Part shown: piece after piece, positions 562 through 62,376 of the stretch
Layout: the number at the start of each line of letters is the position of its first letter
Numbering within the stretch: the first letter of the stretch is position 1
Assembly (NCBI RefSeq): GCF_003721565.1
Contig: NZ_RJJE01000001.1
Coordinates: 372,001-436,000, forward strand
Length of the DNA: 64,000 bases
DNA from: Rufibacter immobilis
GTDB taxonomy: Bacteria; Bacteroidota; Bacteroidia; Cytophagales; Hymenobacteraceae
Reading direction: 5' to 3'
Made by a program: the position numbers and the translations under genes
The notes under the pieces: model-generated
Databases searched by the model: none
The model's input: the letters and a program-made list of their open reading frames with translations, nothing else
Told to the model about the DNA's origin: nothing

Positions 562-595
562 GAAAAGCCGCTTTTCTCAGGAGAAGCGGCTTTTC
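562..595 (+). terminator. Intrinsic terminator after the oxidoreductase gene
   Basis: A 12-bp stem (GAAAAGCCGCTT / AAGCGGCTTTTC) lies 19 bases after the stop at 543. It is A-rich before and T-rich after, so it could work in both directions. The right arm runs straight into the next hairpin repeat. Confidence 0.75.
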
Positions 596-634
596 TGTTT
601 TCAGGCTGTTTTTGGCAAAACAGCCTGAAAACAG
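595..634. repeat. Dispersed hairpin repeat, CTGTTTTC variant
   Basis: Near-perfect hairpin CTGTTTTCAGGCTGTTTT / AAAACAGCCTGAAAACAG. It has the same architecture as the GCGTTTAG family (outer GTTTT, variable GC stem, inner T-tract/A-tract) but with the outer arm CTGTTTTC. It lies directly downstream of the first gene's terminator. Confidence 0.6.
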
Positions 635-658
635 ATTAATTCAATACTATTGTAAACG

Positions 659-852
659 CTGGCGCGAGTCTCCAGACTCGTGTCTTCGGATGCCGGGGAG
701 TCTCTGACTCTCCTCGCTGCCTAGCAGCGAAAGTACGCATGGAGCAATCTTTCCAGGGTCTGGTAAAACAGCCGGATAGAGAATGCCTGTGGTTCCCGGC
801 GAGTCTGGAGACTCGCTTCATCCTTAGTCACGAGTCTGAAGACTCGCGCCAG
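659..852. mobile_element. MITE-like 190-bp element with inverted ends and internal palindromes
   Basis: The left end CTGGCGCGAGTCT and right end AGACTCGCGCCAG are inverted copies. Each end carries a small palindrome: CGAGTCT-CC-AGACTCG at 665-680 and CGAGTCTGAAGACTCG at 831-846. Two more of the same type lie inside, GAGTC-TCT-GACTC at 698-710 and CGAGTCTGGAGACTCG at 800-815. There is no credible coding sequence between the ends and no clear target duplication. The structure fits a non-autonomous miniature element or a clustered palindromic repeat family; which of these is inference. Confidence 0.5.
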
Positions 853-891
853 TTGGGGACAGTTAGTGAGTTGGCAGTAAGTTAGAGCCTT

Positions 892-935
892 TTCTGTTTT
901 GGAGGTGATTTTCTGAAAACGGCTTCAAAACAGAA
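892..935. repeat. Dispersed hairpin repeat, degenerate CTGTTTT variant
   Basis: Outer arms TTCTGTTTTG / CAAAACAGAA flank an imperfect centre (GGTGATTTTCTGAAAACGGC). The GATTTTCnGAAAAC centre is shared with the copies at 1208 and 35865, tying the CTGTTTT and GCGTTTAG variants together. Confidence 0.5.
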
Positions 936-946
936 TTTCCTCCTAT

Positions 947-967
947 GGCGCGGAAGTTCCTTCCGTG
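947..967. repeat. Small GGCGC-flanked palindrome
   Basis: GGCG-CGGAAG-TTC-CTTCCG-TG has the layout of the GGCG-CGAGTCT-CC-AGACTCG-TG palindrome at 661-682, but with a different stem sequence. This suggests a shared frame around a changeable palindrome. The rest of 968-1110 holds nothing I recognise. Confidence 0.35.
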
Positions 968-1143: not shown

Positions 1144-1207
1144 GAAATCGCAAAAGCGTTAATGAAAAGCCTATAAGTGTGTTAGGATTTTATAAGTGTC
1201 ACCGCCA

Positions 1208-1253
1208 TTTCTGTTTTTGGCCTGATTTTCAGAAAACAGGCCAAAAACAGAAA
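1208..1253. repeat. Dispersed hairpin repeat, CTGTTTTTGG variant
   Basis: TTTCTGTTTTTGGCCTG-ATTTTCAGAAAA-CAGGCCAAAAACAGAAA has perfect 17-bp arms and lies 23 bases 3' of the uvrB stop. It probably acts as the first terminator of uvrB. Confidence 0.7.
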
Positions 1254-3388: not shown

Positions 3389-3428
3389 GCGTTTAGCGGC
3401 TCTTTTTCTGAAATTAACCGAAAAACGC
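3389..3428. repeat. Dispersed hairpin repeat, asymmetric GCGTTTAG copy
   Basis: GCGTTTAGCGGCTCTTTTTC followed by TGAAATTAACCG and AAAAACGC. The left arm is canonical; the right arm is the AAATT variant, so only the ends pair well. It lies downstream of the lipoprotein gene that ends at 3490 and overlaps the next hairpin by a few bases. Confidence 0.7.
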
Positions 3429-4217: not shown

Positions 4218-5912
4218 TTATTTAGTTAGGCGCCATCTGCCCCCAATACTTACCCCCAACTGATACGCGTTTGCCTGCTGTTGCTCTTCGCGTACCATAG
4301 GAGTGAGAGAGTAGGTAAACTCTGGCGCCACTAAAATACTCATTTTCCTGCTCACATCATACCCTAGCCCTATGGCCGTTGATGTAGCCCACTGGAGCGT
4401 CTTGAAAGGAGAGTCCTTGTCATTGAAGCCGTACTCCACCGCCGCCACCTGATCTGTCTCCGGTATAATGCTGTTCTGCACCAACACACTCAGGTTAACG
4501 CCGCCGGCGAAATAGGCATATAACTTTTTCATGTTCAGCCGGTAAGCTAACCGCAGCGGGAGCCCCACCTGCTGGTACTTGTATTTAGTATTATACTGAT
4601 CTGTGCGGCTCACGAAAACGTTCTGCGTAGAAACGTCACTTCTGGTAGTTAAAGCACTGGCGGCTAGCGGGGCACTTTTATTGGAACGCATATTGGCGTA
4701 GACGAACCCATTAGGGCTGGAGGCTGACGCCCCCGAAGCATAGACTAAGTAAGAATGCGTGGTAGTGGCCTCGTTTTGGGCATACATAATGCCGCTTTCT
4801 ATCTGCCATTTCTCGTTTATTCTGTAACTGGCACCCACCATGGCAGAATAGGAGTACGCCGGGTTATAACTCTTATTATATTCCTCCACCGCTTCTTGGT
4901 AACTGTGGTACTGCTCATACATCTGCGGCTGGGCCAATGTCATCTCGCTCATGCCCGCGCTCTGCCCAATCTTAACCTGGTTATAAGCGTACTGCGGTGT
5001 ATAGCTCATGTTCAGGCTCCACTTGTAGAAATCATTCTCTTCCTTCTTATCAATGCCTTGATTTTCGGATAGCTGCGGTTGTTGGGCTAGAACAGCAGGG
5101 TTCTCAGGCTCTTTCTGGGCCATAATGGTACGCTTGGGAACCATAGCCAAGGAGGAATCATTTCCGGCAACTGGCAACCCCTTATCTATAGCCAAATTGT
5201 TCGCCATGTCCCTTGTAAAAGGTTTAGCAGACATTGCATTGATGACTGGAGCTTTTGTCAACACAGCCTCCTCTGTTTGCTGGGTTGAAGAAGCTTGGCT
5301 TGCTTCTCCTAACCCCTCAGGTGCCGAACTATCTGCTGCTGGACCTACGCTGGCCAACGCCCCGGCAAAGGCTTCCTCCTTCCGGGCCAATGATGACTCT
5401 GCGCTGGCATTGGTAGTTCTGGGGTTATTCCAATTCCTGCGTTTAGTTCTTCCTGCCTCCTGGCTTAGCTGTTCTTTCTGGGCCTGATTTGCGTTTAGCG
5501 GCTCTTTTTCCAAAATTGGCCCCCAAACGGCAGCCAGTGCGTCTGATGTTTGTGCTGGATTCTGCCCTTCATTGGCAATTATTGTTTCCTTTGCCGCCGG
5601 TGCCGGAAGCTGTTTGTTTTCTTGAGACTGCTTAGGTGCTTGAGTAGCCAAAGAACCTGTTCCCAGAGGGGAGGAGGTATTTTGCCGCCAGAGCACCACG
5701 CCGGCAGATGTGAGCAGTAACAGGAAAACAGCCGCAATAGAGCGGTACCATTTCACCTGCTGCTTATAGCGCTGCAACTCATGGTTCTCCAGTTCTTTGC
5801 CTATGCCTTCCCAAATACGGGCTGGTGGTGTACTCTCAGCCCCCGCAAAGCCCTGCCGGAAGATATCTTCCACAGATTGGCCTTTGTCTTTCTCAGCCGG
5901 TGACTTTTTCAT
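4218..5912 (-). CDS. Membrane protein with anti-sigma-like N-terminus and beta-barrel-like C-terminus
   Basis: 564 residues. The first 55 or so are hydrophilic and include an RIWEGIGKELE segment typical of small cytoplasmic sigma-binding regions in Bacteroidota. One TM helix follows (about 56-75, YRSIAAVFLLLLTSAGVVLW), then a long low-complexity Ala/Gln/Ser-rich stretch (76-290). The final 270 residues have alternating aromatic strands and end in GVSIGGRWRLTK, resembling an outer-membrane beta-barrel or PorT-like domain. The start codon overlaps the sigma factor by 20 bases, the usual sigma/anti-sigma arrangement. The likely role is membrane-bound control of that sigma factor; this rests on position and topology, not on a recognised anti-sigma motif. 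Residues 129-141 are encoded by a copy of the dispersed hairpin repeat. It could also be annotated simply as an outer-membrane beta-barrel protein. Confidence 0.75.
   Translation of the reverse strand: MKKSPAEKDKGQSVEDIFRQGFAGAESTPPARIWEGIGKELENHELQRYKQQVKWYRSIAAVFLLLLTSAGVVLWRQNTSSPLGTGSLATQAPKQSQENKQLPAPAAKETIIANEGQNPAQTSDALAAVWGPILEKEPLNANQAQKEQLSQEAGRTKRRNWNNPRTTNASAESSLARKEEAFAGALASVGPAADSSAPEGLGEASQASSTQQTEEAVLTKAPVINAMSAKPFTRDMANNLAIDKGLPVAGNDSSLAMVPKRTIMAQKEPENPAVLAQQPQLSENQGIDKKEENDFYKWSLNMSYTPQYAYNQVKIGQSAGMSEMTLAQPQMYEQYHSYQEAVEEYNKSYNPAYSYSAMVGASYRINEKWQIESGIMYAQNEATTTHSYLVYASGASASSPNGFVYANMRSNKSAPLAASALTTRSDVSTQNVFVSRTDQYNTKYKYQQVGLPLRLAYRLNMKKLYAYFAGGVNLSVLVQNSIIPETDQVAAVEYGFNDKDSPFKTLQWATSTAIGLGYDVSRKMSILVAPEFTYSLTPMVREEQQQANAYQLGVSIGGRWRLTK
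5491..5529. repeat. Dispersed hairpin repeat inside a coding sequence
   Basis: GCGTTTAGCGGCTCTTTTTC plus CAAAATTGGCCCCCAAACG: the asymmetric form of the family, exactly 39 bases (13 codons), inside the anti-sigma-like gene. On the minus strand it encodes roughly VWGPILEKEPLNA in the low-complexity linker. It is in frame and introduces no stop. Confidence 0.8.
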
Positions 5913-6575: not shown

Positions 6576-6603
6576 TTAGAGAGAGGAGAGTAAATGGAAG
6601 TTA

Positions 6604-6640
6604 GTTTGGGCCCGATTCTGGAAAAACAGCCCCTAAACAG
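6604..6640. repeat. Dispersed hairpin repeat, reversed asymmetric copy
   Basis: Read on the minus strand: CTGTTTAGGGGCTGTTTTTC then CAGAATCGGGCCCAAAC. It lies immediately 3' of the aroE stop with its canonical arm nearest the gene. Confidence 0.65.
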
Positions 6641-18329: not shown

Positions 18330-18378
18330 AAAAGAGCCCCGTTTAGGGGCTCTTTTCGTAAAAACAGGCGCTAAACGC
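18330..18378. terminator. Compound hairpin terminator between hpf and metK (repeat family member)
   Basis: AAAAGAGCCCC-GTTTA-GGGGCTCTTTT (18330-18356) is a bidirectional terminator whose loop and right arm are the start of a dispersed-repeat copy. That copy continues to AACAGGCGCTAAACGC at 18378. The genes converge here, so it serves both. Confidence 0.85.
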
Positions 18379-20821: not shown

Positions 20822-21660
20822 TGAAATCGCTCTTTGCAAAGTATTGGGCAGTTTTAGGCTTGTTTTGGGTAGGTGCGGTAGTGTCTCCGCCAGTACAGGC
20901 ACAAGACACGCCACGTCTTTACCACACAGACTTGCTGCGCGACGGGCTTATCACGGCAGGCGGAGTGACCATGGCCGTAACAGGTTCTGTACTTCTGAGC
21001 AACAAGACGCCGTTGACAATAACAGATCTTGCCTCCTTTGACAAAAGCCAAGTGAACAAGTTTGACCGTTGGGCGGCCGGAAACTTCAGCCAGAAAGCCA
21101 AAGATGCCAGTGATGTCTTCTTCTATACCTCGTACGGCCTGCCGTTGCTTTTCCTGGCAGACCAAAAAGCGGTCCCGCATGCGAAGGACATCTATTTTAT
21201 GTATGCCGAAACCATTTCTCTGGCTGGAGGAATTTATGCTCTTACCGCTGGTTTAACCAACCGGAAGCGGCCAAATGTGTATGCCACTCAGGCGCCTTTG
21301 GAGGAACGCTTGCACAAGTATGCAAAGAACTCCTTCTTTGCCGGACATACCGCCGCAACCGCCAGCGTCACGTTCTTTACGGCCAAAGTTTTCCATGACC
21401 TTCACCCAAATTCGCCCTGGCGCCCCGTGGTATGGGGAGCGGCCGCGGCTTTCCCGGCTACGGTAGGGTATCTCCGCCTGCGGGCCGGAAAACATTTCTT
21501 GAGCGACAACATCATTGGCTACGCCCTAGGAGCCAGCATAGGGATTCTGGTGCCAGAACTGCATAAAAGGAGCCAAGAAACCAGTTGGAGCTTGGTTCCT
21601 GCCTCTGAACAGGCCGCTGGCGAACCATTACAGGGCATTTCCTTCACGAAACGTTTTTAA
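20821..21660 (+). CDS. PAP2-family phosphatase, second of a tandem pair
   Basis: 279 residues, clearly a duplicate of the preceding gene. The strings FFAGHTAA, FFTAKVFHD, VGYLRL-AGKHFLSDN-IGY and GILVP-LHK occur in both in the same order. A signal peptide is visible (MKSLFAKYWAVLGLFWVGAVVSPPVQAQ). Motif 1 is NRKRPNVYA, motif 2 FFAGHTAA, and motif 3 YLRLRAGKHFLSD. Divergence is greatest in the N-terminal third and the tail, so the pair may have different substrates. The genes share one transcript and end at a cluster of hairpins facing the convergent peptidase gene. Confidence 0.87.
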   Translation: MKSLFAKYWAVLGLFWVGAVVSPPVQAQDTPRLYHTDLLRDGLITAGGVTMAVTGSVLLSNKTPLTITDLASFDKSQVNKFDRWAAGNFSQKAKDASDVFFYTSYGLPLLFLADQKAVPHAKDIYFMYAETISLAGGIYALTAGLTNRKRPNVYATQAPLEERLHKYAKNSFFAGHTAATASVTFFTAKVFHDLHPNSPWRPVVWGAAAAFPATVGYLRLRAGKHFLSDNIIGYALGASIGILVPELHKRSQETSWSLVPASEQAAGEPLQGISFTKRF

Positions 21661-21673
21661 CCTAATTTTGAAA

Positions 21674-21735
21674 AAAGAGGCTCTAAACAGGACCGCCAGC
21701 TATAGGTAGCTGGCGGTCCTGTTTAGAGCCTCTTT
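21674..21735. repeat. Inside-out palindrome built from repeat arms
   Basis: Perfect 27-bp arms (21674-21700 and 21709-21735) with an 8-base loop. The outer part is the repeat arm AAAGAGGCTCTAAAC / GTTTAGAGCCTCTTT; the inner part AGGACCGCCAGC / GCTGGCGGTCCT is locus-specific. This is the reverse nesting of the copies at 45244, 48402 and 54705. It acts as a terminator after the second PAP2 gene. Confidence 0.8.
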
Positions 21736-21757
21736 GGCTTTGGCTTTCACTCTGCCG

Positions 21758-21809
21758 CGTTCTGCGTTTAGGGCCTCTTTTTGGAAAAAGAGGCCCTAAA
21801 CGCAGAACG
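21758..21809. repeat. Dispersed hairpin repeat, perfect copy
   Basis: CGTTCTGCGTTTAGGGCCTC and its exact complement around TTTTTGGAAAAA. It is the second hairpin in the convergent gap, probably the terminator of the S9 peptidase gene. The stem GGCCTC/GAGGCC shows a base-pair change relative to the GGGCTC and GGGCCG copies. Confidence 0.9.
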
Positions 21810-21838
21810 GGTTACTTTTCTTCAGGCCCTTTTGATCA

Positions 21839-24244: not shown

Positions 24245-24326
24245 ATGGCAGTCTTTTATTAACTACCAATAAAAAAGTCCTAGTAATCTAGGACTTTTTT
24301 ATTGGTAGTTAATAAAAGACTGCCAT
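24245..24326. repeat. Perfect palindrome with 39-bp arms
   Basis: The arms 24245-24283 and 24288-24326 are exact reverse complements around TAAT. The arm begins ATGGCAGTC and ends AAAAAAGTCCTAG. It is AT-rich with a T6/A6 tract near the centre and lies 34 bases upstream of the S9 peptidase start codon, inside its expected leader or promoter region. It could be a terminator for upstream transcription, but the length far exceeds any need for termination. Confidence 0.9.
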
Positions 24327-24803: not shown

Positions 24804-24861
24804 TTAGTATAAAGATCAAAAAAGGGCTGCAAATACAGCCCTTTTTTGATCTTTATACTAA
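24804..24861. terminator. Terminator of the Sus operon with 26-bp perfect arms
   Basis: TTAGTATAAAGATCAAAAAA-GGGCTG and its exact complement surround the 6-base loop CAAATA. The right arm contains the stop codon of the DUF1735 gene (24858-24860), so the hairpin forms at the very end of the message. Confidence 0.9.
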
Positions 24862-25844: not shown

Positions 25845-27407
25845 TTAGTTGACGTCCCAGAAAATTGGAGTATTGAATACAAAGTTAGGTCCTGTAGAAG
25901 GGACGTTCGCAGAGTTCAACTGATATTCTGTGTTAGGGTAAAGCAGTCTTTTAGGTAATCTATCCGGACTAGTTGCTTGAGACACAGTAGAAACAAAAGT
26001 TGAGCTAGATGAGACAGAAGGGTAACCTGTTCTTCTAAATTCACTCCAAGCCTCATGACCATGTATAAAATTGAGTGCAATATATTTTTGAGTAATTATA
26101 GTTTCAATTTTATTAGTCGAAGCCTCAAAATCTACAAGTTGGTTCTCTTTGTTTGCAGCTAAGTAGGCATCTGCATCAGCAATTGGGTCTTTACCTGCAA
26201 GAACAGCATTATTAGCACCTTTGTAAAGATAGCGGAACGAACTGATTACCCCTTGTCTATATGCTGTTGCTGCCGTTCCAGTCAGTAGCCCTCGTTGCAT
26301 TGCCTCTGCCTGTAAAAAGTAACTTTCAGCTGCAAGTACAATAGGCATACCCATAGTACGGCCTTTGAATAAGCCAACAGTATCTAATGCATTCAATCCT
26401 GTCCCTCTACCAATGTACCAAGCAATTGTGTTTGCGGGTGCTGTAGGAACACTACCCTCTTGATTGCCTAAACGATTATTAGGTGTACTAGGAAATGAGC
26501 GATATATAGTAGCTCCTCTCACCGGATCTGATATTCTGCTTCCATTATACATAGTTAAAGCATACGAACCAGGAATGTATTGACGACCACCGGAAGCAGC
26601 AGCACCAGAAGTGGAACTATGGTAGGTACCCCAATAAGGATTTTGATTTGCAGTTGTGTAACCAGGGTTAATCAAGGCATCATCTGTTAAGAAAACAGGA
26701 GAGGCACCGAAAGTAGCAAATCTTTCATTAACAAAAGAAGTCAAAGAAGAAACTCCTGAAATACGGATGAGCATTCTAAGCTTAACAGTATTCGCAAATT
26801 GCTTCCACCTCTCCATATTTCCACCAAACATTACATCTGTAGTCCCTGGGTTAGTTGCAGTAGGAGAATTATTTATAATGTACACAGCTGAATCTAATTG
26901 CACAATCAAGTCTTTATATATATCTGCTGCATTGTCGTATTGAGGAGAAATATTACCATCTCCTATCAAAGAATTTGTATAGGGCAAATCACCATATTGG
27001 TCTACAAGCATCTGAAAATTATGCGATTTCATAATTTTAGCAATAGCATAAAATCTTGCTAGTGCTGGATCATTTTTCGTATTATCAATTACATACTGGT
27101 AATCGTTAAGATTATCATACATTCCTGTCCAAAGTCCTGTATTGTCAGTAGTGCTATAGTTATACGTAATATACGCACCAGAAAAGCCGAAGCCTCCCGC
27201 ATTGGCTGCATACCCTACTACTCCTGATCCGTAATTATTATAGGTTACCATTAAGGATGCGGTAGTAGTTAAAGCACCAGGTAATATAAGCTGAGGAGTA
27301 GTAGAAGTTGCTGAATTTGGATTTTCATTCACGTCAAGGAAGTCATTACATGACACTGTCATTAAAGTCCAAATACTTAGAGCAAGTAATCTGAATATTT
27401 TCTTCAT
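25845..27407 (-). CDS. SusD/RagB-family nutrient-binding outer-membrane lipoprotein
   Basis: 520 residues with a lipoprotein signal (LLALSIWTLMTVSC, then NDFLDVNENPNS). DVNENPN, the helical TPR-like core (IAKIMKSHNFQMLVDQYGDLPY) and the closing HGHEAWSEFRRTGYPSV are typical of the SusD-like type 2 group. It forms the lid that captures substrate over the SusC channel. It lies 18 bases after the SusC gene, in the conserved order. This subgroup often goes with peptides or small glycans, so carbohydrate specificity should not be assumed. AT content is visibly above that of flanking genes. Confidence 0.94.
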   Translation of the reverse strand: MKKIFRLLALSIWTLMTVSCNDFLDVNENPNSATSTTPQLILPGALTTTASLMVTYNNYGSGVVGYAANAGGFGFSGAYITYNYSTTDNTGLWTGMYDNLNDYQYVIDNTKNDPALARFYAIAKIMKSHNFQMLVDQYGDLPYTNSLIGDGNISPQYDNAADIYKDLIVQLDSAVYIINNSPTATNPGTTDVMFGGNMERWKQFANTVKLRMLIRISGVSSLTSFVNERFATFGASPVFLTDDALINPGYTTANQNPYWGTYHSSTSGAAASGGRQYIPGSYALTMYNGSRISDPVRGATIYRSFPSTPNNRLGNQEGSVPTAPANTIAWYIGRGTGLNALDTVGLFKGRTMGMPIVLAAESYFLQAEAMQRGLLTGTAATAYRQGVISSFRYLYKGANNAVLAGKDPIADADAYLAANKENQLVDFEASTNKIETIITQKYIALNFIHGHEAWSEFRRTGYPSVSSSSTFVSTVSQATSPDRLPKRLLYPNTEYQLNSANVPSTGPNFVFNTPIFWDVN

Positions 27408-27425
27408 TTAAGTTTTCTCTTTTAA

Positions 27426-31029: not shown

Positions 31030-31085
31030 CTTCATCACAAAGAAGCCCCTGACAGCGAATTAGCAGGGGCTTCTTTGTGATGAAG
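31030..31085. terminator. Long hairpin terminator after the DUF6588-like gene
   Basis: Perfect 22-bp arms (CTTCATCACAAAGAAGCCCCTG and its complement, split here as 31030-31051 and 31064-31085) around a 12-base loop. It lies 12 bases past the stop at 31098 on the minus strand. Confidence 0.85.
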
Positions 31086-32315: not shown

Positions 32316-32351
32316 CGTTTAGCGGCTCTTTTTCCAAAATTAGGGCAAAAC
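32316..32351. repeat. Dispersed hairpin repeat, asymmetric copy
   Basis: CGTTTAGCGGCTCTTTTTC followed by CAAAATTAGGGCAAAAC. The same AAAATTnGG right arm occurs in the copies at 5491, 51906 and 62339. It lies 11 bases past the TSUP stop. Confidence 0.7.
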
Positions 32352-32361
32352 CAGAAGGGTG

Positions 32362-33206: not shown

Positions 33207-33251
33207 GCGTTTAGCGGCCGTTTTTCCAAAATCTGCTCAAAAACGGCCGCC
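33207..33251. repeat. Dispersed hairpin repeat overlapping a stop codon
   Basis: GCGTTTAGCGGCCGTTTTTC, CAAAATCTGCTC, AAAAACGGCCGCC. The arms GGCGGCCGTTTTT-like and AAAAACGGCCGCC pair strongly. The stop codon of the lamin-tail protein gene (33237-33239, minus strand) and its last four codons lie inside the repeat. Confidence 0.75.
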
Positions 33252-35807: not shown

Positions 35808-35864
35808 GTATAGCCTGTACTTTAATTATAATGAAAAGTTGGCTTACTTTGCAATTGGCCTGCG

Positions 35865-35904
35865 GCGTTTAGAGCCTGATTTTCAGAAAACAAGCGCTAA
35901 ACGC
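35865..35904. repeat. Dispersed hairpin repeat in a divergent promoter gap
   Basis: GCGTTTAGAGCCTGATTTTC AGAAAACAAGCGCTAAACGC. It is upstream of both the lamin-tail gene and asd, one of only three copies not at a gene end. Confidence 0.75.
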
Positions 35905-35973
35905 AAAAGCCATAACTCTGGAGAAAACCAGCAGGTTCTCTCAGACATCTTATTATATTATATACACCCTTAC

Positions 35974-36963
35974 ATGAAAGTAGCTGTAGTAGGCGCCACC
36001 GGCCTAGTGGGTGGCGAAATGCTGAAGGTCCTGGCGGAGCGTAACTTCCCGGTAGACGAATTATTGTTAGTAGCCTCTGAAAAGTCAGTGGGCCAGAAGA
36101 TGGAATTCCAAGGCAAGGAATATACAGTCATCGGCATGGCCGATGCCATTGCGCAGAAACCCCAGATCGCGATTTTCTCGGCGGGCGGCAGCGTGAGCAA
36201 GGAAATGGCTCCTAAGTTTGCCGAAGCCGGCACCACCGTGGTAGACAACTCCTCGGCCTGGCGCATGGACCCCACCAAAAAGCTGGTGGTTCCGGAAATC
36301 AACGCGTCTGAGCTGACCCCTTCAGATAAAATCATTGCCAACCCCAACTGTTCCACCATCCAAATGGTGGTAGCCCTGAACCACCTGCACAAGGCTTTCA
36401 AGATTAAGCGCATTGTGGTGAGCACCTACCAGTCTGTGACCGGAACCGGTAAGAAAGCCGTGGACCAGCTTATGAACGAGCGCGCCGGCAAAGAAGGAGA
36501 AAAAGCCTACGCTTACCCTATTGACCTGAACGTGATTCCGCACATTGATGTGTTCACAGAAAACGGCTACACCAAAGAGGAAATGAAAATGGTGAACGAG
36601 ACCAAGAAGATCATGGGTGATGACACCATTAGGGTAACTGCCACCACGGTGCGTATTCCGGTTATGGGCGGTCACTCAGAATCTGTGAACGTGGAGTTTG
36701 AGCAGGATTTCACGCTGGAAGAAGTGTACCGCATTCTACAGGAAACCCCTGGCGTAGTAGTGGTAGACGATGTGACCAACCTGAAATACCCCATGCCTAT
36801 GGACGCCCACGGCAAAGACGACGTATTGGTAGGCCGCATCCGCCGTGATGACACCCAACCCAATACTCTAAACCTCTGGGTAGTGGCCGATAACCTGCGC
36901 AAAGGCGCCGCCACCAATGCCGTCCAGATTGCGGAATACCTGGTGGAGCACAAACTGGTATAA
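35974..36963 (+). CDS. asd: Aspartate-semialdehyde dehydrogenase
   Basis: 330 residues from the ATG at 35974. Upstream in-frame ATGs extend into the divergent gene and the repeat, while MKVAVVGATGLVGGEMLKVLAER is the family N-terminus. It reduces aspartyl phosphate with NADPH, the branch-point step to lysine/diaminopimelate, threonine and methionine. Landmarks are the nucleotide-binding GATGLVGGEM, FSAGGSVSKE, the catalytic Cys126 in NPNCSTIQM, YQSVTGTGKKAVDQL, IPVMGGHSESVNVEF with the active-site His, and VGRIRRD near the C-terminus. A hairpin terminator follows 20 bases after the stop. Confidence 0.97.
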   Translation: MKVAVVGATGLVGGEMLKVLAERNFPVDELLLVASEKSVGQKMEFQGKEYTVIGMADAIAQKPQIAIFSAGGSVSKEMAPKFAEAGTTVVDNSSAWRMDPTKKLVVPEINASELTPSDKIIANPNCSTIQMVVALNHLHKAFKIKRIVVSTYQSVTGTGKKAVDQLMNERAGKEGEKAYAYPIDLNVIPHIDVFTENGYTKEEMKMVNETKKIMGDDTIRVTATTVRIPVMGGHSESVNVEFEQDFTLEEVYRILQETPGVVVVDDVTNLKYPMPMDAHGKDDVLVGRIRRDDTQPNTLNLWVVADNLRKGAATNAVQIAEYLVEHKLV

Positions 36964-37489: not shown

Positions 37490-37528
37490 CGTTTAGGGGC
37501 CGTTTTTTGAAAAACGGCCCCTAAACAG
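37490..37528. repeat. Dispersed hairpin repeat, near-perfect copy
   Basis: CGTTTAGGGGCCGTTTTTT-G-AAAAACGGCCCCTAAACAG. It lies 26 bases past the stop of the 1832-residue protein gene and is a strong terminator for it. Confidence 0.9.
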
Positions 37529-43052: not shown

Positions 43053-43354
43053 TGACGATTAGGTTAAGTTAAGGGGGGTAAGTTGAAACGTATATAGCAC
43101 CCGCTGTTGGCAGGCATGGGGTAAGCGTTCACTTCATTAACTAAACCAGCTCATCTTCCTGGCGGCTGTATTCTCTTCTTATCTTTATAGGCTAGGGGTA
43201 GAACTGCTTTCCAAAATAGAAGATATTCTATTGATCACCAACTATTTCTTTAATATTTTTATAAAAGTAGCTATACTTTTTATCAATAAGTTAAAACTAA
43301 TATTACCTGTGCGTTAAAAAATAGAAAACAGGTCAGCGGCAACGGCCAAAAAGA
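43053..43354. other. Non-coding region upstream of the multidomain gene
   Basis: About 300 bases, AT-rich from 43200, without coding frames. No TAnnTTTG match in the right place is visible; the promoter must be here but cannot be pinpointed. Confidence 0.35.
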
Positions 43355-43418
43355 AAGGCGCCGGTAGAGTAAAAGTGAGGTTGTTCTTAACACCTCACTT
43401 TTACTCTACCGGCGCCTT
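43355..43418. repeat. Long perfect palindrome with 27-bp arms
   Basis: The arms AAGGCGCCGGTAGAGTAAAA plus GTGAGGT (43355-43381) and their exact complement (43392-43418) surround a 10-base loop. Outside the arms, GTCAGC (left) and GCTGAC (right) pair again after a short mismatch, extending the structure. It lies between the 1832-residue gene's upstream region and the terminator repeat of the next gene. Confidence 0.85.
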
Positions 43419-43444
43419 GGAGCTGACACTGCTGTTTATCTTTC

Positions 43445-43482
43445 CGTTTAGGGGTTGTTTTTTGAAAATCAGCCCCTAAACG
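43445..43482. repeat. Dispersed hairpin repeat
   Basis: CGTTTAGGGGTTGTTTTTTG AAAATCAGCCCCTAAACG. It contains one G-T pair and one mismatch and lies 7 bases past the stop of the lipoprotein gene that ends at 43490. Confidence 0.85.
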
Positions 43483-43489
43483 TCTTCAA

Positions 43490-45243: not shown

Positions 45244-45304
45244 GAAGCCGCCTTGCGTTTAGGGGCCGTTTTTGAAAAAACGGCCCCTAAACGCAAGGCG
45301 GCTT
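45244..45304. repeat. Dispersed hairpin repeat with extended perfect arms
   Basis: Core GCGTTTAGGGGCCGTTTTT / AAAAACGGCCCCTAAACGC, extended outward by AAGCCGCCTT / AAGGCGGCTT, which is found at no other copy in the window. The total arm is about 29 bp, in a convergent gap. Confidence 0.92.
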
Positions 45305-48401: not shown

Positions 48402-48457
48402 ACCGCCCCGCGTTTAGGGGCCGTTTTTCTAAAAACGGCCCCTAAACGCGGGGCGGT
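48402..48457. repeat. Dispersed hairpin repeat with extended perfect arms
   Basis: Same core as the copy at 45244, extended by ACCGCCCC / GGGGCGGT. It lies 24 bases past the alpha/beta-hydrolase stop. The extension differs from those at 45244 and 54705. Confidence 0.92.
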
Positions 48458-49291: not shown

Positions 49292-49329
49292 CGTTTTAGG
49301 TCCGTTTTACGAGAAAGAGCCGCTAAACG
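49292..49329. repeat. Dispersed hairpin repeat, decayed copy
   Basis: CGTTTTAGGTCCGTTTTACG AGAAAGAGCCGCTAAACG. The outer arms pair while the centre is mismatched. It lies 11 bases past the stop of the 94-residue membrane protein gene. Confidence 0.6.
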
Positions 49330-49693: not shown

Positions 49694-49732
49694 CGTTTAG
49701 GGGCTCTTTTTGGAAAAACTGCCCCTAAACGC
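49694..49732. repeat. Dispersed hairpin repeat
   Basis: CGTTTAGGGGCTCTTTTTGG AAAAACTGCCCCTAAACGC. The stem has a two-base internal mismatch (TC against CT). It lies between the dxs terminator position and the small membrane protein gene. Confidence 0.85.
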
Positions 49733-49787: not shown

Positions 49788-51704
49788 CTACACGCGCACG
49801 GCAACGTCCATCATCTCTCTTACGGCACGCTCAATGCCTTCGGGGTCAAAACCGCAGAGGCGGTGCAGCTCCAGTTGGCTACCGTGCTCCACAATCACGT
49901 CTGGGATACCGAGGCGTTTCACCTGGGCCTGGTAGCCATGATCGGCCATGAACTCCAGCACCGCGCTCCCGAAACCGCCTTGCAGGCAGCCGTCTTCCAC
50001 GGTGAGTACTTTGTCATACTTCTGGAAGATGTGGTGCAGCAATTTCTCATCCAGCGGCTTGGCAAAGCGCATGTCAAAATGGCCCGGACGGAGCCCGTCC
50101 AGTTTCAGGTTTTTGCACACATCTACCACATAGTTGCCAATGTGGCCAATGGTTAGAACTGCTACTTCCTCGCCTTCCTGTATGGTGCGGCCTTTGCCTA
50201 CCTCAATCAGTTCCAGCGGGGTGCGCCAGGCGGGCATCACTCCCTCGCCGCGCGGGTAACGGATGGTGAAAGGCCCCATGCCGTCCTGACTGGCGGTGAA
50301 CATGAGGTTACGCAACTCCTGCTCGTTCATAGGCGAAGACACCACCATGTTAGGGATGCAGCGCATGTAGGCAATGTCATAGGAGCCGTGGTGGGTCTGG
50401 CCGTCGGCGCCGGCAAAACCGGCCCGGTCCAGGCAGAAAACTACGTGCAGGTTCTGCAGACACACGTCATGCACCACCTGGTCATAGCCGCGCTGCATGA
50501 AGCTGGAGTAGATGTTGCAGAACGGTACCAGCCCTTGCGTGGCCAGACCCGCCGAGAAGGTGACGGCGTGCTGTTCGGCAATTCCCACATCCAGCGCGCG
50601 GTCTGGCATGGCCTTCATCATGATGTTCATGGAAGACCCACTGGGCATGGCGGGCGTTACCCCAAAAATCTTCGGGTTCTGCTCAGCCATCTCCAGCAGC
50701 GTGTGCCCAAACACATCCTGGTACTTGGGTGGCTGCGGCGTGGTGTGGTGTACTTTGTAGATTTCGCCGGTTACTTTGTCAAACAGGCCGGGCGCGTGCC
50801 ACTTGGTCTGCTCTTTCTCCGCCAGGGCGAAGCCCTTGCCCTTTACCGTCACACAGTGCAGGATTTTAGGGCCCGGTATCTTTTTAAGGTCGTTGAGGAC
50901 CATGGCCAGATGATGCACATCGTGCCCGTCAATCGGCCCGAAATAGCGGAATTTAAGGCTCTCAAATAAGTTGCTCTGCTTCAGGAGCGTGGCTTTGATG
51001 CCGCTTTCCACCTTAGAGGCAATCTGCTGGGCATTGGGCCCAAACTTGCTGATCTTGCCCAGAATGTTCCAGATCTCGTCGCGCACTTTGTTGTAGGTGC
51101 GGGAGGTGGTAATATCTGTGAGGTATTCTTTGAGCGCGCCCACGTTGGGGTCAATGCTCATGCAGTTGTCATTGAGCACCACCAGCAGATCGGCGTCAGT
51201 GGCGCCTGCGTGGTTAAGGGCCTCAAAGGCCATACCGGCGGTCATGGAACCGTCGCCAATCACGGCTATGTGGTGGCGGTCCAGTTCCTGTTTGTATTGG
51301 GAGGCCACGGCCATGCCCAGAGCCGCCGAGATAGACGTGCTGGAGTGGCCTACGCCAAAGGTATCATACTCGCTTTCTTTGCGTTTGGGAAAGCCGGAGA
51401 TGCCGTTGAGTTTACGGTTGGTATGGAAGGCGTCGCGGCGGCCAGTCAGGATCTTATGGCCGTAGGCCTGGTGCCCCACGTCCCAGACCAGCTGGTCATA
51501 CGGCGTGTTGAACACGTAGTGCAACGCCACCGTCAGTTCCACCACGCCCAGGCTCGCCCCAAAGTGCCCCCCGTAGATAGACACATTATCAATGATGAAC
51601 TGCCGTAATTCCTGGCACACCTGCAGCAACTGGTCTTCAGACAGCTGGCGCAAATCGGCTGGCGAATCAATCTTGGCCAGCAGTTCTCCGGGTTCAATGA
51701 TCAT
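49788..51704 (-). CDS. dxs: 1-deoxy-D-xylulose-5-phosphate synthase
   Basis: 638 residues. It is the thiamine-diphosphate enzyme that joins pyruvate and glyceraldehyde 3-phosphate at the start of the MEP isoprenoid pathway. Landmarks are YGGHFGASLGVVELTVALHYVF, WDVGHQAYGHKILTGR, GVGHSSTSISAALGMA, the ThDP motif GDGSMTAGMAFEALNHAG...LVVLNDN, GPIDGHDV, VGIAEQHAVTFSAGLA, AGADGQTHHGSYD and IRYPRGEG. The C-terminal transketolase fold ends with EDGCLQGGFGSAVLEF. It is divergent from scpA, with a 320-base gap that carries one repeat. Its isoprenoids would feed the prenyltransferase encoded at 62.4 kb. Confidence 0.97.
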   Translation of the reverse strand: MIIEPGELLAKIDSPADLRQLSEDQLLQVCQELRQFIIDNVSIYGGHFGASLGVVELTVALHYVFNTPYDQLVWDVGHQAYGHKILTGRRDAFHTNRKLNGISGFPKRKESEYDTFGVGHSSTSISAALGMAVASQYKQELDRHHIAVIGDGSMTAGMAFEALNHAGATDADLLVVLNDNCMSIDPNVGALKEYLTDITTSRTYNKVRDEIWNILGKISKFGPNAQQIASKVESGIKATLLKQSNLFESLKFRYFGPIDGHDVHHLAMVLNDLKKIPGPKILHCVTVKGKGFALAEKEQTKWHAPGLFDKVTGEIYKVHHTTPQPPKYQDVFGHTLLEMAEQNPKIFGVTPAMPSGSSMNIMMKAMPDRALDVGIAEQHAVTFSAGLATQGLVPFCNIYSSFMQRGYDQVVHDVCLQNLHVVFCLDRAGFAGADGQTHHGSYDIAYMRCIPNMVVSSPMNEQELRNLMFTASQDGMGPFTIRYPRGEGVMPAWRTPLELIEVGKGRTIQEGEEVAVLTIGHIGNYVVDVCKNLKLDGLRPGHFDMRFAKPLDEKLLHHIFQKYDKVLTVEDGCLQGGFGSAVLEFMADHGYQAQVKRLGIPDVIVEHGSQLELHRLCGFDPEGIERAVREMMDVAVRV

Positions 51705-51905: not shown

Positions 51906-51944
51906 GCGTTTAGGGGCTGTTTTTCAGAAATTAAGGCAAAAACG
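51906..51944. repeat. Dispersed hairpin repeat, asymmetric copy in a divergent gap
   Basis: GCGTTTAGGGGCTGTTTTTC AGAAATTAAGGCAAAAACG. It lies between the dxs and scpA starts, not at a gene end. The remainder of 51705-52024 shows nothing else I can name. Confidence 0.7.
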
Positions 51945-53847: not shown

Positions 53848-53886
53848 GCGTTTAGGGGCTCTTTTTGGAAAAAGAGCCCCTAAACG
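53848..53886. repeat. Dispersed hairpin repeat, perfect copy
   Basis: GCGTTTAGGGGCTCTTTTTG GAAAAAGAGCCCCTAAACG. It starts 7 bases after the stop of the YbhN-like gene and works as its terminator. Confidence 0.93.
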
Positions 53887-54704: not shown

Positions 54705-54778
54705 AAAGCTGCCTCTGTGATGCGTTTAGGGCCTGTTTTTCCAAAAACAGGCCCTAAACGCATCACAGAGGCAGCTTT
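54705..54778. repeat. Dispersed hairpin repeat with the longest extended arms
   Basis: Core GCGTTTAGGGCCTGTTTTT / AAAAACAGGCCCTAAACGC, extended by AAAGCTGCCTCTGTGAT / ATCACAGAGGCAGCTTT, for about 36 bp of perfect arm. It is followed by T8 and serves the DUF4199-like gene and the convergent TonB-domain gene. Confidence 0.93.
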
Positions 54779-59105: not shown

Positions 59106-59152
59106 GTAAAAGGAGAGGCTCCCTGTTCATCACAGGGAGCCTCTCCTTTTAC
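59106..59152. terminator. Terminator between FKBP and recO genes
   Basis: Perfect 20-bp arms GTAAAAGGAGAGGCTCCCTG and its complement with a 7-base loop, in a convergent gap. It has no similarity to the repeat family. Confidence 0.9.
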
Positions 59153-59195
59153 AATAAAGCAGAAGGCATAAGCTTCTATCTCACTACATGCTCAC

Positions 59196-59906
59196 TTATT
59201 CACTCAGCACTTCCGAGAGGACAGGCAGCGATTTTATTTCGCCTAGTTGATCAATGTGCAGCTGAAAATAGCGCACCAACAGATACAGAAGCTCGCGGCG
59301 GACTGTTCCGTTAGGTAGATTAGCTTCTTCTTTCCTGGTGATTACTTCTTTTAGATATGGCTCCAGCCGCTGCAATTGCATTAAGCTGTTACCTAGTGTA
59401 GCAGCCCCTCCGGCCTCAAAAGCCACCTGCGTGATGACTTCCTCGGCTGAGGAAACCCCAAAGCCCAGAAGTCCAGCCAACTCCAGCATAAAAGCCAAGT
59501 GGAAATTCTCAAATCTGGTCTGCATTTGGTCAAAGTGCAGGATGGAATGGTACAGAAACTCAAATAAGTATCTATTTTCTTCTTCTTCCCTAACAGCCTT
59601 AGACACCAATTCAGATAAAAAAAGTAGAATGCTGCTTTTTCTGATGTCATAGGCCACTGAAGAGAACTGATAACTGCATTTATATTCTGAAATTCGGGTA
59701 AGCCCACCTTTGGCCGATGGGTACACCACCATATCCAGCAGCGTGAATGGCTGAAACAATGCAATACGCGACGCACTTCCTTTCTTCCGGACACTGTTCA
59801 CTATATAGCTCTGCAACCCCAACTCCTCTGTGTAAATGCGCACAATGATAGATGACTCCCTGAATTTGATGAAGTTCAGGACAATGCCCCTGGTTTTAAC
59901 CAACAT
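59196..59906 (-). CDS. recO: DNA repair protein RecO
   Basis: 236 residues. The N-terminal OB fold MLVKTRGIVLNFIKFRESSIIVRIYTEELGLQSYIVNSVRKKGS and a helical C-terminal domain (LFEFLYHSILHFDQ, FHLAFMLELAGLLGFG) fit RecO. It loads RecA on SSB-coated DNA with RecR in gap repair. The zinc-finger Cys residues found in some RecO proteins are absent, as in other Bacteroidota. The gene is followed in this phylum by porZ, as here, with 94 bases between the recO start and the upstream porZ stop. Confidence 0.94.
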   Translation of the reverse strand: MLVKTRGIVLNFIKFRESSIIVRIYTEELGLQSYIVNSVRKKGSASRIALFQPFTLLDMVVYPSAKGGLTRISEYKCSYQFSSVAYDIRKSSILLFLSELVSKAVREEEENRYLFEFLYHSILHFDQMQTRFENFHLAFMLELAGLLGFGVSSAEEVITQVAFEAGGAATLGNSLMQLQRLEPYLKEVITRKEEANLPNGTVRRELLYLLVRYFQLHIDQLGEIKSLPVLSEVLSE

Positions 59907-60000
59907 AGATTTCTAGAAGTAATGAATGCTTCTTCATACGTAGTAATTCCGCAGAAGCAGAAAAGGGAATATACGGTATAGTAATTTGGGAGAAGTAAAT

Positions 60001-62295
60001 TTACTGAATGGCTATTTTAGTCATGCAGGTCTGCGCTCCATCTGCGGAAGAAGCCATGACCAGATACACGCCGGGCTTCGCTTTACGGCCGCTGTAATCA
60101 CGTCCGTTCCAGGCAAAAGTGCCGCCGGTTGCTTTTCCCTCAAACACCAGCAGTCCTGCTGCATCTGTAATCTTCACCCAGCCGTTGTCTGGCACTCCCG
60201 CAATGCCAATGGTACCGGTAAAACCCGCGCGCACTGGGTTTGGAAATACCTTCAAGCAACCTTTATTTACTTTCTCTGTACGGGTAGCCGTGCCCCTGTA
60301 AATAGCCACTCCTGCCTCAGTACCAATGAGTACTTCACCGGTGGCATGGTTAATGGAAATATCCCTGATTTTGTCTGAGGGAAGAGGGCTATTCTTAGTG
60401 GTGAAATGATGCATCATCTCTTCGCCGGTTTCATTGAATAGCCAGAGGCCGGTATCAGTCCCAATCCATTTCCGGTTACCGCCGTCTATGGCAATACTTC
60501 TGATCACCTGCCCTTGCAGCAAGGGGCGCCGTTCATAGATGGGTAAATATGCTCCTGCGTAAGAAGACGTGAAGATATCTGGTGAGCTGGTAAATACGGC
60601 AACACCGTTATTGGTTCCTGCCCATACCTCGCCCTGCAAATCTACGGCCAGACTGAACACCTGAATGCCGGGCAACCCGCCCTGTCCTGCCCCTCCAAGA
60701 TGCACATACGCAGAGGTCACATCATCATACACAATCAGGCCAGCGTCGCGGCCGTTGGTGCTAATGGTCACCCATTTATAGCCATTGCCATCCACAATTA
60801 CCTTATCTACCCCGCTCCCTAACCCGTAACCGGTAAATGGGTGTGATTTCCAGGTACCGTCTGGTTTCAACTCAAACAAACCCGGGGCATTGGCAATTTG
60901 ATTTCTGTTGGCTACCCACAGGCTGCCTGCTGCGTCTGTTGCCAAGCCTGTAACCCTTATATAAGACCTGTCATTGGCGTCAATAGCGCTCAACAGCGGG
61001 CTGTTGGTGTTGTTGTAGAGCTTCACATCGTTCAGTCCGTTCCACTCAAGAAGCCCTGCTCCATAGCTGGCGATGTAGAATTTACCTGTTACTACATTAC
61101 GATGCGCCATCACCAAGTCACGGGCATGGGATGGGAACTGACCTCCACTGGCAAAGTTATAGCTCACCCACTGCCCGTTCTGGTACTGGTAGAATCCTGC
61201 GCCCGATCCTTGCTGTAGGTACGCTTGGTTGTATCCGCCCCCAAGCACCGTAAACAATCCGGGTTCTGCATACACACTAAACACATCAACATTGGCGGGA
61301 CCATTAGGCACGTAACTTCTCACTCCTGTACCGGAAACATATACCAGTCCCCGGTCATAACTGGCCGCCCAGACACCCCCACTTCTGGCAGGGAGCGCCA
61401 TACGCACGTTTGAGAGCACAGGATCTGTGTACTGAGCTACTTGACCTGTCCCTGACACCTCCAGCACTTGGGCTGTCCCAGATACCGTTAGCCTTTTCCC
61501 GTTGCTCTGTAATGAGCTGAATTGATTATCTGAAGTAGAGAAAGCGGTTTTTGACCAAGAAGCCCCATTGAAACGGTACAACCCATTTCCGTTCACACCC
61601 ACATATATTCCTCCGGCAAAAGCGGCTATGGTTTTAATGGTTTCAGCCCCGGCCGCGGGTAGACCCTGAGAGCTGCCAAACCGTTTCCAGCTTCTAAAGT
61701 CCAGCAGATTAGTACTGTTGAGAGAGGCAGCCATTACTCCTCCGGAGGAAGCAATGTAAAGACTGTCGTTTAAAACGGTAGAGGCATAGACCTGCACCAC
61801 TTCGCCCTGCGCCCCAAGGTTGCTGTAGGTGTCTTTTATCTCCAGCTTCACCAGATCCACCACCACCAATCCGAAGGAGGTGGCCACGTAAGCTTTCTTA
61901 TTATGTGTATAGAGATGATGGATTACCTTAGCGCCCGCCATGGGCTTACGGAGAAGTTCGGTTAGGTTATTTACCTTCCCATTGGAAACGAGATCTAAGT
62001 TGGTGTTCTCATACGCCACTAGCAGTGTTGCCGTCACGGTATCATACGCCAATGTACTTATGTTCACATCACTGAAGCCATCTGTACGGGAAAGGGTCTG
62101 GAGCGTGTTCTCGTCTTTGATTAACCTGAAGAAGCCATCCTCTGTGGCGCAGTAAACCGAGGAAGGTGTTTCAGCCACGGCTTTGGCACGATGATTAGGC
62201 ACATGGATCTGCCATGTGCCAATAGGGAGACTGCTGGTTTGCGCACCGGCTGCTACAGCCGCCAATAAGGCCATCCAAAGCATGCTCCATTTCAT
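60001..62295 (-). CDS. porZ: T9SS component PorZ (beta-propeller surface protein)
   Basis: 764 residues from the ATG at 62295. MKWSMLWMALLAAVAAGAQ is a good signal, and the ATG at 62313 adds only MVPSGL. The N-terminal propeller begins IGTWQIHVPNHRAKAVAETPSSVYCATEDGFFRL, the pattern typical of PorZ. Two propeller domains follow (KVIHHLYTHNKKAYVATSFGLVVVDL; GVDKVIVDGNGYKWVTISTNG), and the end is a T9SS type A sorting domain (VFPNPVRAGFTGTIGIAGVP ... GVYLVMASSADGAQTCMTKIAIQ). PorZ helps the T9SS attachment complex join A-LPS to cargo. The recO-porZ order is conserved. Other T9SS genes are not in this window. Confidence 0.9.
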   Translation of the reverse strand: MKWSMLWMALLAAVAAGAQTSSLPIGTWQIHVPNHRAKAVAETPSSVYCATEDGFFRLIKDENTLQTLSRTDGFSDVNISTLAYDTVTATLLVAYENTNLDLVSNGKVNNLTELLRKPMAGAKVIHHLYTHNKKAYVATSFGLVVVDLVKLEIKDTYSNLGAQGEVVQVYASTVLNDSLYIASSGGVMAASLNSTNLLDFRSWKRFGSSQGLPAAGAETIKTIAAFAGGIYVGVNGNGLYRFNGASWSKTAFSTSDNQFSSLQSNGKRLTVSGTAQVLEVSGTGQVAQYTDPVLSNVRMALPARSGGVWAASYDRGLVYVSGTGVRSYVPNGPANVDVFSVYAEPGLFTVLGGGYNQAYLQQGSGAGFYQYQNGQWVSYNFASGGQFPSHARDLVMAHRNVVTGKFYIASYGAGLLEWNGLNDVKLYNNTNSPLLSAIDANDRSYIRVTGLATDAAGSLWVANRNQIANAPGLFELKPDGTWKSHPFTGYGLGSGVDKVIVDGNGYKWVTISTNGRDAGLIVYDDVTSAYVHLGGAGQGGLPGIQVFSLAVDLQGEVWAGTNNGVAVFTSSPDIFTSSYAGAYLPIYERRPLLQGQVIRSIAIDGGNRKWIGTDTGLWLFNETGEEMMHHFTTKNSPLPSDKIRDISINHATGEVLIGTEAGVAIYRGTATRTEKVNKGCLKVFPNPVRAGFTGTIGIAGVPDNGWVKITDAAGLLVFEGKATGGTFAWNGRDYSGRKAKPGVYLVMASSADGAQTCMTKIAIQ

Positions 62296-62338
62296 TAAAC
62301 CTGAAGGCACCATACGTAAAGTTACACAGGATTCAAGA

Positions 62339-62376
62339 CGTTTAGAGCCTGTTTTTCCGAAATTTGGGCTAAAACA
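62339..62376. repeat. Dispersed hairpin repeat, asymmetric copy
   Basis: CGTTTAGAGCCTGTTTTTCC GAAATTTGGGCTAAAAC. The AAATTTGGG arm variant is like that at 32316. It lies about 50 bases past the prenyltransferase stop. Confidence 0.7.

What the first reader, a model, noticed from the sequence alone, without database searches (positions are those of the whole stretch)
595..62376. A dispersed family of about 23 short hairpin repeats with compensating stem changes
The sequence shows GTTTAG-stem-TTTTT/AAAAA-stem-CTAAAC units of about 40 bp at 595, 892, 1208, 3389, 5491, 6604, 18330, 19795, 21674, 21758, 32316, 33207, 35865, 37490, 43445, 45244, 48402, 49292, 49694, 51906, 53848, 54705 and 62339. 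In the well-formed copies both arms change together: GGGCCG/CGGCCC, GGGCTC/GAGCCC, GGCCTG/CAGGCC and GGCCTC/GAGGCC. That is covariation, so a folded hairpin appears to be maintained. Almost all copies sit just 3' of a gene, so they probably work as terminators or mRNA 3'-end protectors. I know no named family with this core; novelty is not established.
Basis: partly seen in the sequence, partly recalled or inferred. Interest (0 to 1): 0.85.

Follow-up and report, generated by a model that had tools for sequence, protein, structure and literature searches.

The report
Genus-wide palindromic DNA motif near genes
A 36-base palindromic DNA motif is scattered through all 16 genomes examined of one bacterial genus, mostly just after genes, and appears to be kept and newly made by point mutation rather than by jumping, which suggests that an unknown DNA-reading factor uses it.

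Summary
Shuffled sequence gives none. The exact skeleton occurs 1051 times in this genome, 10-1103 times in 15 congeners and at most once in each of 63 other genomes. About a sixth of copies here cap a longer, covarying, terminator-like stem. Plain copies of this genome pair less than shuffled arms, and over all tandem copies G.T and A.C mismatches are equally common on the transcribed strand (193 vs 174), unlike ordinary terminators (24 vs 5). Between two congeners skeleton bases diverge 10%, arms 26%, loop 34%. Copies recur in orthologous gaps; in the coding sequences tested they arise without insertion. Arms differ between species like dialects, and gaps between converging genes usually hold exactly one copy. 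Best reading: a DNA-level recognition site for an unidentified factor, mostly at ends of transcription units. An uptake-sequence-like drive is the main rival. It is not a proven member of any named family.

The parts
597..632 (.). family copy (convergent gap), 16 of 16 pairs formed
896..931 (.). family copy (convergent gap)
1213..1248 (.). family copy (convergent gap)
3391..3426 (.). family copy, asymmetric form (tandem gap); a weak copy (score 15) in the one orthologous gap testable
5493..5528 (.). family copy inside ORF 4218-5912(-); weaker copy (22.6) at the corresponding place of the G002 gene
6603..6638 (.). family copy (tandem gap); copy in the one orthologous gap testable
18341..18376 (.). 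family copy 3' of metK (convergent gap; copy in 3 of 4 orthologous gaps); its left arm also completes a terminator with AAAAGAGCCCC just upstream
21653..21688 (.). family copy with degenerate left arm, overlapping a gene end; its A-rich half pairs with a T-rich half ending near 21735, around a terminator hairpin
21766..21801 (.). family copy at tip of stem 21758-21809
32317..32352 (.). family copy, asymmetric form (tandem gap); copy in 5 of 7 orthologous gaps
33209..33244 (.). family copy, asymmetric form (tandem gap); copy in 4 of 7 orthologous gaps
35867..35902 (.). family copy at the called 5' end of gene 35806-36963(+)
37491..37526 (.). family copy, perfect arms (tandem gap); copy in 3 of 4 orthologous gaps
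43446..43481 (.). family copy (tandem gap); no copy over threshold in 5 of 5 orthologous gaps, though G011 has a family-like stretch by eye
45257..45292 (.). family copy at tip of terminator-like stem 45245-45304 (convergent gap); copy in 13 of 13 orthologous gaps
48412..48447 (.). family copy at tip of stem 48402-48457 (tandem gap); copy in 13 of 13 orthologous gaps, with covariation
49293..49328 (.). family copy (tandem gap); copy in 5 of 8 orthologous gaps
49695..49730 (.). family copy just after a terminator-like hairpin 3' of dxs (49788-51704,-); copy in 7 of 8 orthologous gaps
51908..51943 (.). family copy, asymmetric form, in the divergent dxs/scpA gap; 11 of 12 orthologous gaps hold a copy, not always at the same offset
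53850..53885 (.). family copy, perfect arms (tandem gap); copy in 4 of 4 orthologous gaps
54724..54759 (.). family copy at tip of stem 54705-54778, followed by a T-tract (convergent gap); copy in 2 of 2 orthologous gaps
62340..62375 (.). family copy, asymmetric form (tandem gap); copy in 5 of 7 orthologous gaps

Best explanation
The family is a genus-specific DNA recognition motif of 36 bp: two inverted half-sites GTTT-N8-TTTT at fixed spacing. SHOWN in the samples examined: copies recur in orthologous gaps; skeleton bases are more constrained than arms or loop; in the coding sequences tested, copies arise without insertion; arms follow species dialects; gaps between converging genes usually hold exactly one copy, and copies prefer gene 3' ends. 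INFERRED: an unidentified sequence-specific factor binds the palindrome as DNA at the ends of transcription units, where a two-sided site serves both convergent genes, either as a roadblock to RNA polymerase or as a topoisomerase or nucleoid-protein site. In a minority of places the motif has been built into the apical part of a terminator-like (often two-way) hairpin, and there the arms covary.
For: Whole-genome counts of the exact skeleton: 1051 here, 10-1103 in 15 congeners, 0 or 1 in each of 63 others. Of 17 window gaps with a copy and at least one orthologous gap, 16 have a copy in at least one relative, e.g. 13 of 13 at 45257 and at 48412. G004/G014 (86% identity, 260 kb): 68 of 86 and 69 of 86 syntenic copies recognised in the other genome; of the remaining 35, 18 have the same length, 17 could not be judged and none shows a clean 28-48 base difference. 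99 of 101 ortholog pairs: skeleton diverges 0.104, arms 0.259, loop 0.338; neutral simulations give equal values. Coding sequence: a histidine-kinase copy absent, with no gap, from 7 orthologs of 75-78% identity; another gene has it strong in 2, weak in 2 and absent in 11 of 15 genomes, no gap in any; a tilS copy scores 14 or more in 14 of 16 species, no gap in 16. Mismatches in 231 tandem copies: G.T 193, A.C 174; in 51 ordinary terminators 24 and 5 (Fisher p 0.0016). Of 47 convergent gaps 35 hold one copy, 6 none, 6 two (Poisson 17, 17, 9). Copies per kb here: convergent 5.6, tandem 2.7, divergent 1.3.
Against: No factor is identified. 21 copies lie in divergent gaps and 12 in called genes, where an end-of-unit role does not apply. 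In the relatives the position bias is weaker: 3.0, 1.7 and 1.5 copies per kb. The asymmetric form has no significant orientation to transcription (29 vs 17, p 0.10). A well-conserved factor such as gyrase would not explain the dialects. Some pairing signal exists outside the tip copies: relatives' plain copies 0.561 vs 0.521, copies with outer stem 3-5 (z 5.0 and 7.5), G014 0.494 vs 0.450, G009 z 3.6, though four other relatives give z 0.7-1.8 and G013 -1.9. The retention rate between G004 and G014 (0.774) does not by itself exclude decay from perfect ancestors (simulated 0.73 at 16% per branch). Ortholog 36-mers were placed by best ungapped match, which lowers divergence. The tilS copies may partly reflect protein conservation, and at the second tilS site three species lack a copy and have an alignment gap.
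Confidence: 0.5

Rival explanations
1. Uptake-sequence-like motif: a DNA receptor prefers this palindrome, and biased uptake plus recombination drives it to high number, in dialects, by point mutation, as with DUS/USS of Neisseriaceae and Pasteurellaceae. Position at gene ends and in terminators is then mere tolerance.
For: Species dialects: GTTTAG arms 70% here, 0-20% in the congeners sampled; G012 prefers GTTTTCGGGCTC, G013 GTTTTTGGCCTG. In-place origin without indels in coding sequence. At the first tilS site the local dialect comes with an arginine found in none of the 15 other species. The longest copy-free stretch of C1:1-400000 (20.7 kb) has low GC, 0.446, like foreign DNA. Papers state the same traits for uptake sequences: point-mutation origin (PMC1939737, passages), dialects and inverted pairs at terminators (PMC3630211, passages).
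Against: Half-sites hardly occur alone: 234 of 234 hits of GTTTAG.G.C..TTTTT have at least 5 of 8 partner bases, and of 164 GTTTAGGGGC one has no partner (chance level). Spacing is not more even than expected once gap class and length are fixed (permutation P 0.97). Competence of these bacteria was not tested.
Confidence: 0.25
2. RNA hairpin at mRNA 3' ends (terminator or exonuclease barrier) for the family as a whole.
For: Covariation and T enrichment in copies that cap an outer stem; covariation at one locus in 14 species, 19 cells changed on both sides vs 4.3 shuffled; in the 70 copies chosen for pairing, 75 such cells vs 40; tandem tip copies show G.T 16 vs A.C 6.
Against: No strand bias of mismatches over all tandem copies, no T enrichment after plain copies, no covariation over all copies in this genome, 21 copies in divergent gaps.
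Confidence: 0.1
3. REP-like mobile palindrome moved by a RAYT (Y1 transposase).
For: Size, palindromy, number and position are those of REPs; one Y1_Tnp gene in the genome, named REP-associated tyrosine transposase by NCBIfam, with two family-like hairpins beside it seen by eye.
Against: None of 35 testable differences between G004 and G014 shows a clean 28-48 base length change (17 of them could not be judged); copies arise in coding sequence without indels; no GTAG or CGTC tag visible in the flank base counts; G006 has no Y1_Tnp match but about 5 copies per 10 kb in 40 kb; at one copy per about 2.3 kb, copies beside the gene are expected.
Confidence: 0.1
4. Mutational by-product: template switching at chance palindromes perfects arms and extends stems, without any function.
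For: Outer stems scoring 6 or more occur in 35 of 203 copies (2.1 expected) and only where the core has at least 13 of 16 pairs.
Against: It does not explain a fixed sequence skeleton, its constraint or one copy per convergent gap.
Confidence: 0.05

Closest known systems
REP (repetitive extragenic palindromes; GTAG and CGTC families, Di Nocera et al. 2013, PMC3733652)
   Same: Short palindrome of 20-40 bp, very many copies, mostly between convergent or tandem genes and near stop codons
   Different: No GTAG/CGTC tag visible, no insertion signature found, in-place origin in coding sequence, dialects between species, no clear transposase link
DNA uptake sequences (DUS of Neisseriaceae, USS of Pasteurellaceae)
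   Same: Very many copies, species dialects, origin by point mutation in existing sequence, inverted pairs at terminators
   Different: Here practically always an inverted pair of fixed 36 bp, about 94% intergenic in this genome, usually one per convergent gap; no uptake known to me or tested
Intrinsic terminators
   Same: About a sixth of copies here form the tip of a longer stem, with T enriched after it
   Different: Plain copies have the T-rich arm first and the A-rich arm last, with no T enrichment after them

Membership tests
REP | 20-40 bp palindrome in high copy number, mostly extragenic | tested here: met
   203 copies in 464 kb, 13 of them in called genes; 1051 exact skeletons in the genome
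REP | GTAG or CGTC tag at one end | tested here: not met
   judged from base counts of the flanks, which read roughly TTTGC/TTTCC before and GCAA or AGA after the core; copies were not searched one by one for the tag
REP | spread as a mobile element (insertions at empty sites), RAYT-linked | tested here: inconclusive
   no clean length change in 35 cases, 17 of them not judgeable; no gap at two coding sites where relatives lack the copy; G006 lacks Y1_Tnp yet has copies. Only species, not strains, were compared
DUS/USS | evolves in place by point mutation; dialects between related species | tested here: met
DUS/USS | occurs as single oriented copies, common in coding sequence | tested here: not met
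   234 of 234 long-pattern half-sites have the partner half, 11 lie in genes
DUS/USS | enhances DNA uptake through a receptor | not testable with these tools
   needs an uptake assay
Intrinsic terminator | GC-rich hairpin directly followed by a T-tract in the sense direction | tested here: inconclusive
   tandem copies with outer stem of 6 or more have on average 4.2 T in 10 nt at the 3' end, plain copies 2.3
Intrinsic terminator | stem kept at RNA level (G.U favoured over A.C on the transcribed strand) | tested here: not met
   193 vs 174 over all 231 tandem copies; 24 vs 5 in 51 ordinary terminators; tip copies alone 16 vs 6
Rfam family | match at the gathering score | tested here: not met
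   0 matches in the window; 15 weak matches at E up to 1, all below gathering scores

The most novel reading that the evidence does not exclude
A driven, dialect-forming palindromic DNA motif in Bacteroidota, comparable to uptake sequences but practically always an inverted pair: a self-recognition or end-of-transcription mark read by a fast-evolving genus-specific factor, which rewrites existing DNA (perhaps even codons of tilS) by point mutation instead of inserting.
Probability: 0.3. Interest if true: 0.85.

Novelty: new variant of a known kind. Interest (0 to 1): 0.62.

Why it matters
REPs are often taken as miniature mobile elements or RNA hairpins. Here sixteen related genomes hold a REP-like family for which I find no sign of insertion, whose DNA skeleton is constrained and whose arms change species by species. 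That gives a tractable system for asking how a thousand or more dispersed sites change together and which factor reads them, and it warns that shared arm variants among repeats are not by themselves proof of RNA folding.

Tried and rejected
Single half-sites as the unit: rejected, 234 of 234 have the partner. Element arm borrowed as the 3' arm of an outside terminator: real at metK and a few loci, but overall little above shuffled flanks (score 6 or more: tandem 2 vs 1, convergent 8 vs 4). Distance-regulated spacing: not found. Rfam membership: none. Named carriers through plasmid records: only chance-level matches, E 6. Window gap 43053-43489 as an insertion test: flanks not alignable by eye. 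Naming the organism: the nearest named MetK loci are Pontibacter, 83-85%, and records of the own or a very near genome may be hidden there; Rufibacter is my guess from recall, not a result. Generic scans of two Pontibacter and four Hymenobacter loci of about 21 kb gave no copy. Covariance-model counts per genome were cut at 87 scored candidates and are lower bounds; the model also has 1-4 weak matches in 4 of 63 genomes outside the genus. My interim view that RNA folding is irrelevant was too strong: tip copies do covary.

Limits: gene calls are from my own hexamer caller, not a published program; the pair model was trained on copies with at least 11 pairs, which favours paired copies; the control terminators were picked for strong stems; relatives were sampled, not read whole; an orthologous gap counted as holding a copy need not hold it at the same offset. 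No paper on this family was seen in searches (open-access full text; of these, 62, 63 and 89 listed only the first 10, 10 and 8 of 18, 30,660 and 77 papers). Papers: abstract, outline and passages of PMC3733652; passages of PMC6006769, PMC12306157 and PMC3630211; outline, abstract and passages of PMC1939737; all others in search listings only.
Full report
Observation. The window is G000:C8:372001-436000 of a 4.77 Mb genome. It found none in one shuffle each of the window and of 400 kb of C1. In the 464 kb examined there are 203 copies, about one per 2.3 kb; extrapolated, about 2000 per genome. The exact skeleton GTTT-N8-TTTT-N4-AAAA-N8-AAAC occurs 1051 times in the whole genome, 10-1103 times in each of 15 congeners, and at most once in each of 63 other genomes of the family and order (5 of 63 have one); the reversed control pattern gives 0 or 1. 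G012 has only 10, probably because its dialect breaks the TTTT part.

Position. Gene calls are mine. Of 203 copies, 55 lie in convergent gaps (5.6 per kb), 113 in tandem gaps (2.7 per kb), 22 in divergent gaps (1.3 per kb) and 13 in called genes. Tandem copies lie a median 37 nt after the stop, and 89 of 113 are nearer the stop than the next start. In the relatives sampled the bias is weaker: 3.0, 1.7 and 1.5 per kb. Gaps between converging genes usually hold exactly one copy: of 47 such gaps of 40 bp or more in C1:1-400000, 35 have one, 6 have two and 6 none, against about 17, 9 and 17 by Poisson; of 149 tandem gaps 74 have one, 12 more and 63 none, against 51, 22 and 76. Among gaps of 60 bp or more in the 464 kb, 44 of 51 convergent gaps hold a copy. 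With class and length of gap held fixed, spacing along the chromosome is not more even than chance.

Is it an RNA hairpin? Two tests speak against it for the family as a whole. First, if the stem were selected in the transcript, G.U pairs should outnumber A.C mismatches on the transcribed strand. In 231 tandem copies (113 here, 118 in relatives) they are equal (193 vs 174, p 0.35), while 51 ordinary terminators of the same genomes show 24 vs 5 (p 0.0005); the difference has Fisher p 0.0016. Second, counting all 192 ungapped copies of this genome, the inner arms pair no better than shuffled arms (0.617 vs 0.613). The split matters: copies whose flanks extend the stem by 6 or more do covary (here 0.905 vs 0.835, relatives 0.811 vs 0.598), so do those with 3-5 (z 5.0 and 7.5), while plain copies of this genome pair less than shuffled (0.518 vs 0.574). 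Plain copies of the relatives pooled pair a little better (0.561 vs 0.521), which pooling of dialects can also produce; single relatives gave z from -1.9 (G013) to 3.6 (G009), and G014 0.494 vs 0.450.

The terminator-linked minority. 35 of 203 copies have an outer stem scoring 6 or more (2.1 expected), all of them among the 100 copies with at least 13 of 16 core pairs. At window 45257 all 13 relatives with the orthologous gap have a copy; by eye, 10 of the 12 whose copy is printed carry it at the tip of an outer stem whose sequence differs from species to species and often ends in T-runs. At 48412 all 13 relatives have a copy, and the 14 sequences show 19 cells changed on both sides against 4.3 in shuffles, with 93% paired. 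3' of dxs, 9 of the 10 relatives whose 3' side was printed show, by eye, an ordinary terminator directly followed by a family copy. In this genome 33 of 168 convergent and tandem copies are tips, 40 have a separate hairpin within 50 nt, 4 lend an arm to an outside hairpin and 91 have nothing of the kind.

How it evolves. Of 17 window gaps with a copy and at least one orthologous gap, 16 hold a copy in at least one relative; the exception is 43446. Four further window gaps hold copies only in relatives, so there is turnover. G004 and G014 (86% identity over 260 kb) hold 91 and 94 copies. In each direction 86 are in alignable places, and 68 and 69 are recognised in the other genome. Of the 35 remaining, 18 have the same length, 17 could not be judged, and none shows a clean 28-48 base difference. 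In 99 of 101 ortholog pairs (at least 20 of 36 bases alike) the 16 skeleton positions differ by 10.4%, the arms by 25.9% and the loop by 33.8%; neutral simulations with the same recognition threshold give equal values. The retention rate itself does not exclude decay from perfect ancestors. Double changes in paired positions are hardly above independence (73 vs 66.3). So the skeleton is constrained as sequence, while pairing of the arms is at most weakly kept in this pair of species.

In coding sequence copies can arise without insertion. A hybrid histidine kinase gene has a copy (score 39) where seven orthologs of 75-78% identity have none and no gap. Another gene has a strong copy in G000 and G010, weak ones in G003 and G014 and none in the other 11 of 15, with no gap in any. 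In tilS a copy lies at the same codons, without gap in 16 of 16 species and with score 14 or more in 14; a second site scores so in 11 of 16, and three of the others have an alignment gap there. Protein conservation may contribute to the tilS sites. At the first site G000 has the arm GTTTAG and with it an arginine where the other 15 have leucine or glutamine; this is one case and only suggestive.

Dialects. GTTTAG begins 70% of arms here and 0-20% in the congeners sampled; G012 prefers GTTTTCGGGCTC and G006/G013 GTTTTTGGCCTG. Since nearly all testable window copies sit in gaps where relatives also have copies, the local dialect probably replaced older sequence in place (inference).

What it most likely is. 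A DNA-level recognition site of an unknown factor, preferably at ends of transcription units (inference). One copy per convergent gap and two-fold symmetry fit a two-sided role there. Dialects and in-place change fit an uptake-sequence-like process, which I keep as the main rival; published work describes point-mutation origin, dialects and inverted pairs at terminators for those sequences (PMC1939737 and PMC3630211, passages). The REP/RAYT reading shares number and position (PMC3733652, abstract and passages) but lacks the tag, and I found no insertion.

Noticed in passing
window 24245-24326, 24804-24861, 31030-31085, 43355-43418, 59106-59152: Long, nearly perfect hairpins (stem scores 19-39) that are not family members and look like very long two-way terminators.
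   Followed up: no
L051:1220-1380: Upstream of the Y1 transposase gene (L051:1432-1977) lie short palindromes of another kind (around TCCGGATT and GGGATT...AATCCC), which may be that transposase's own REPs (by eye).
   Followed up: no
G000:C1:27374-48089: The longest copy-free stretch in the 400 kb of C1 read: 20.7 kb, GC 0.446 against 0.52, 21 called genes; perhaps a recent acquisition.
   Followed up: no
window 6.6-18.3 kb and 21.8-32.3 kb: The two long copy-free stretches of the window hold a polysaccharide tyrosine-kinase gene and genes 25845-30554 without ortholog in the relatives' fetched stretches.
   Followed up: partly
window 21661-21838: A terminator hairpin is flanked by two half-elements that pair with each other; the four relatives printed keep this inside-out arrangement with changed sequence (by eye).
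   Followed up: partly
L040:4114-5517 (tilS): Two family copies lie in the coding frame of tilS, the first without gap in 16 of 16 species and with score 14 or more in 14.
   Followed up: yes
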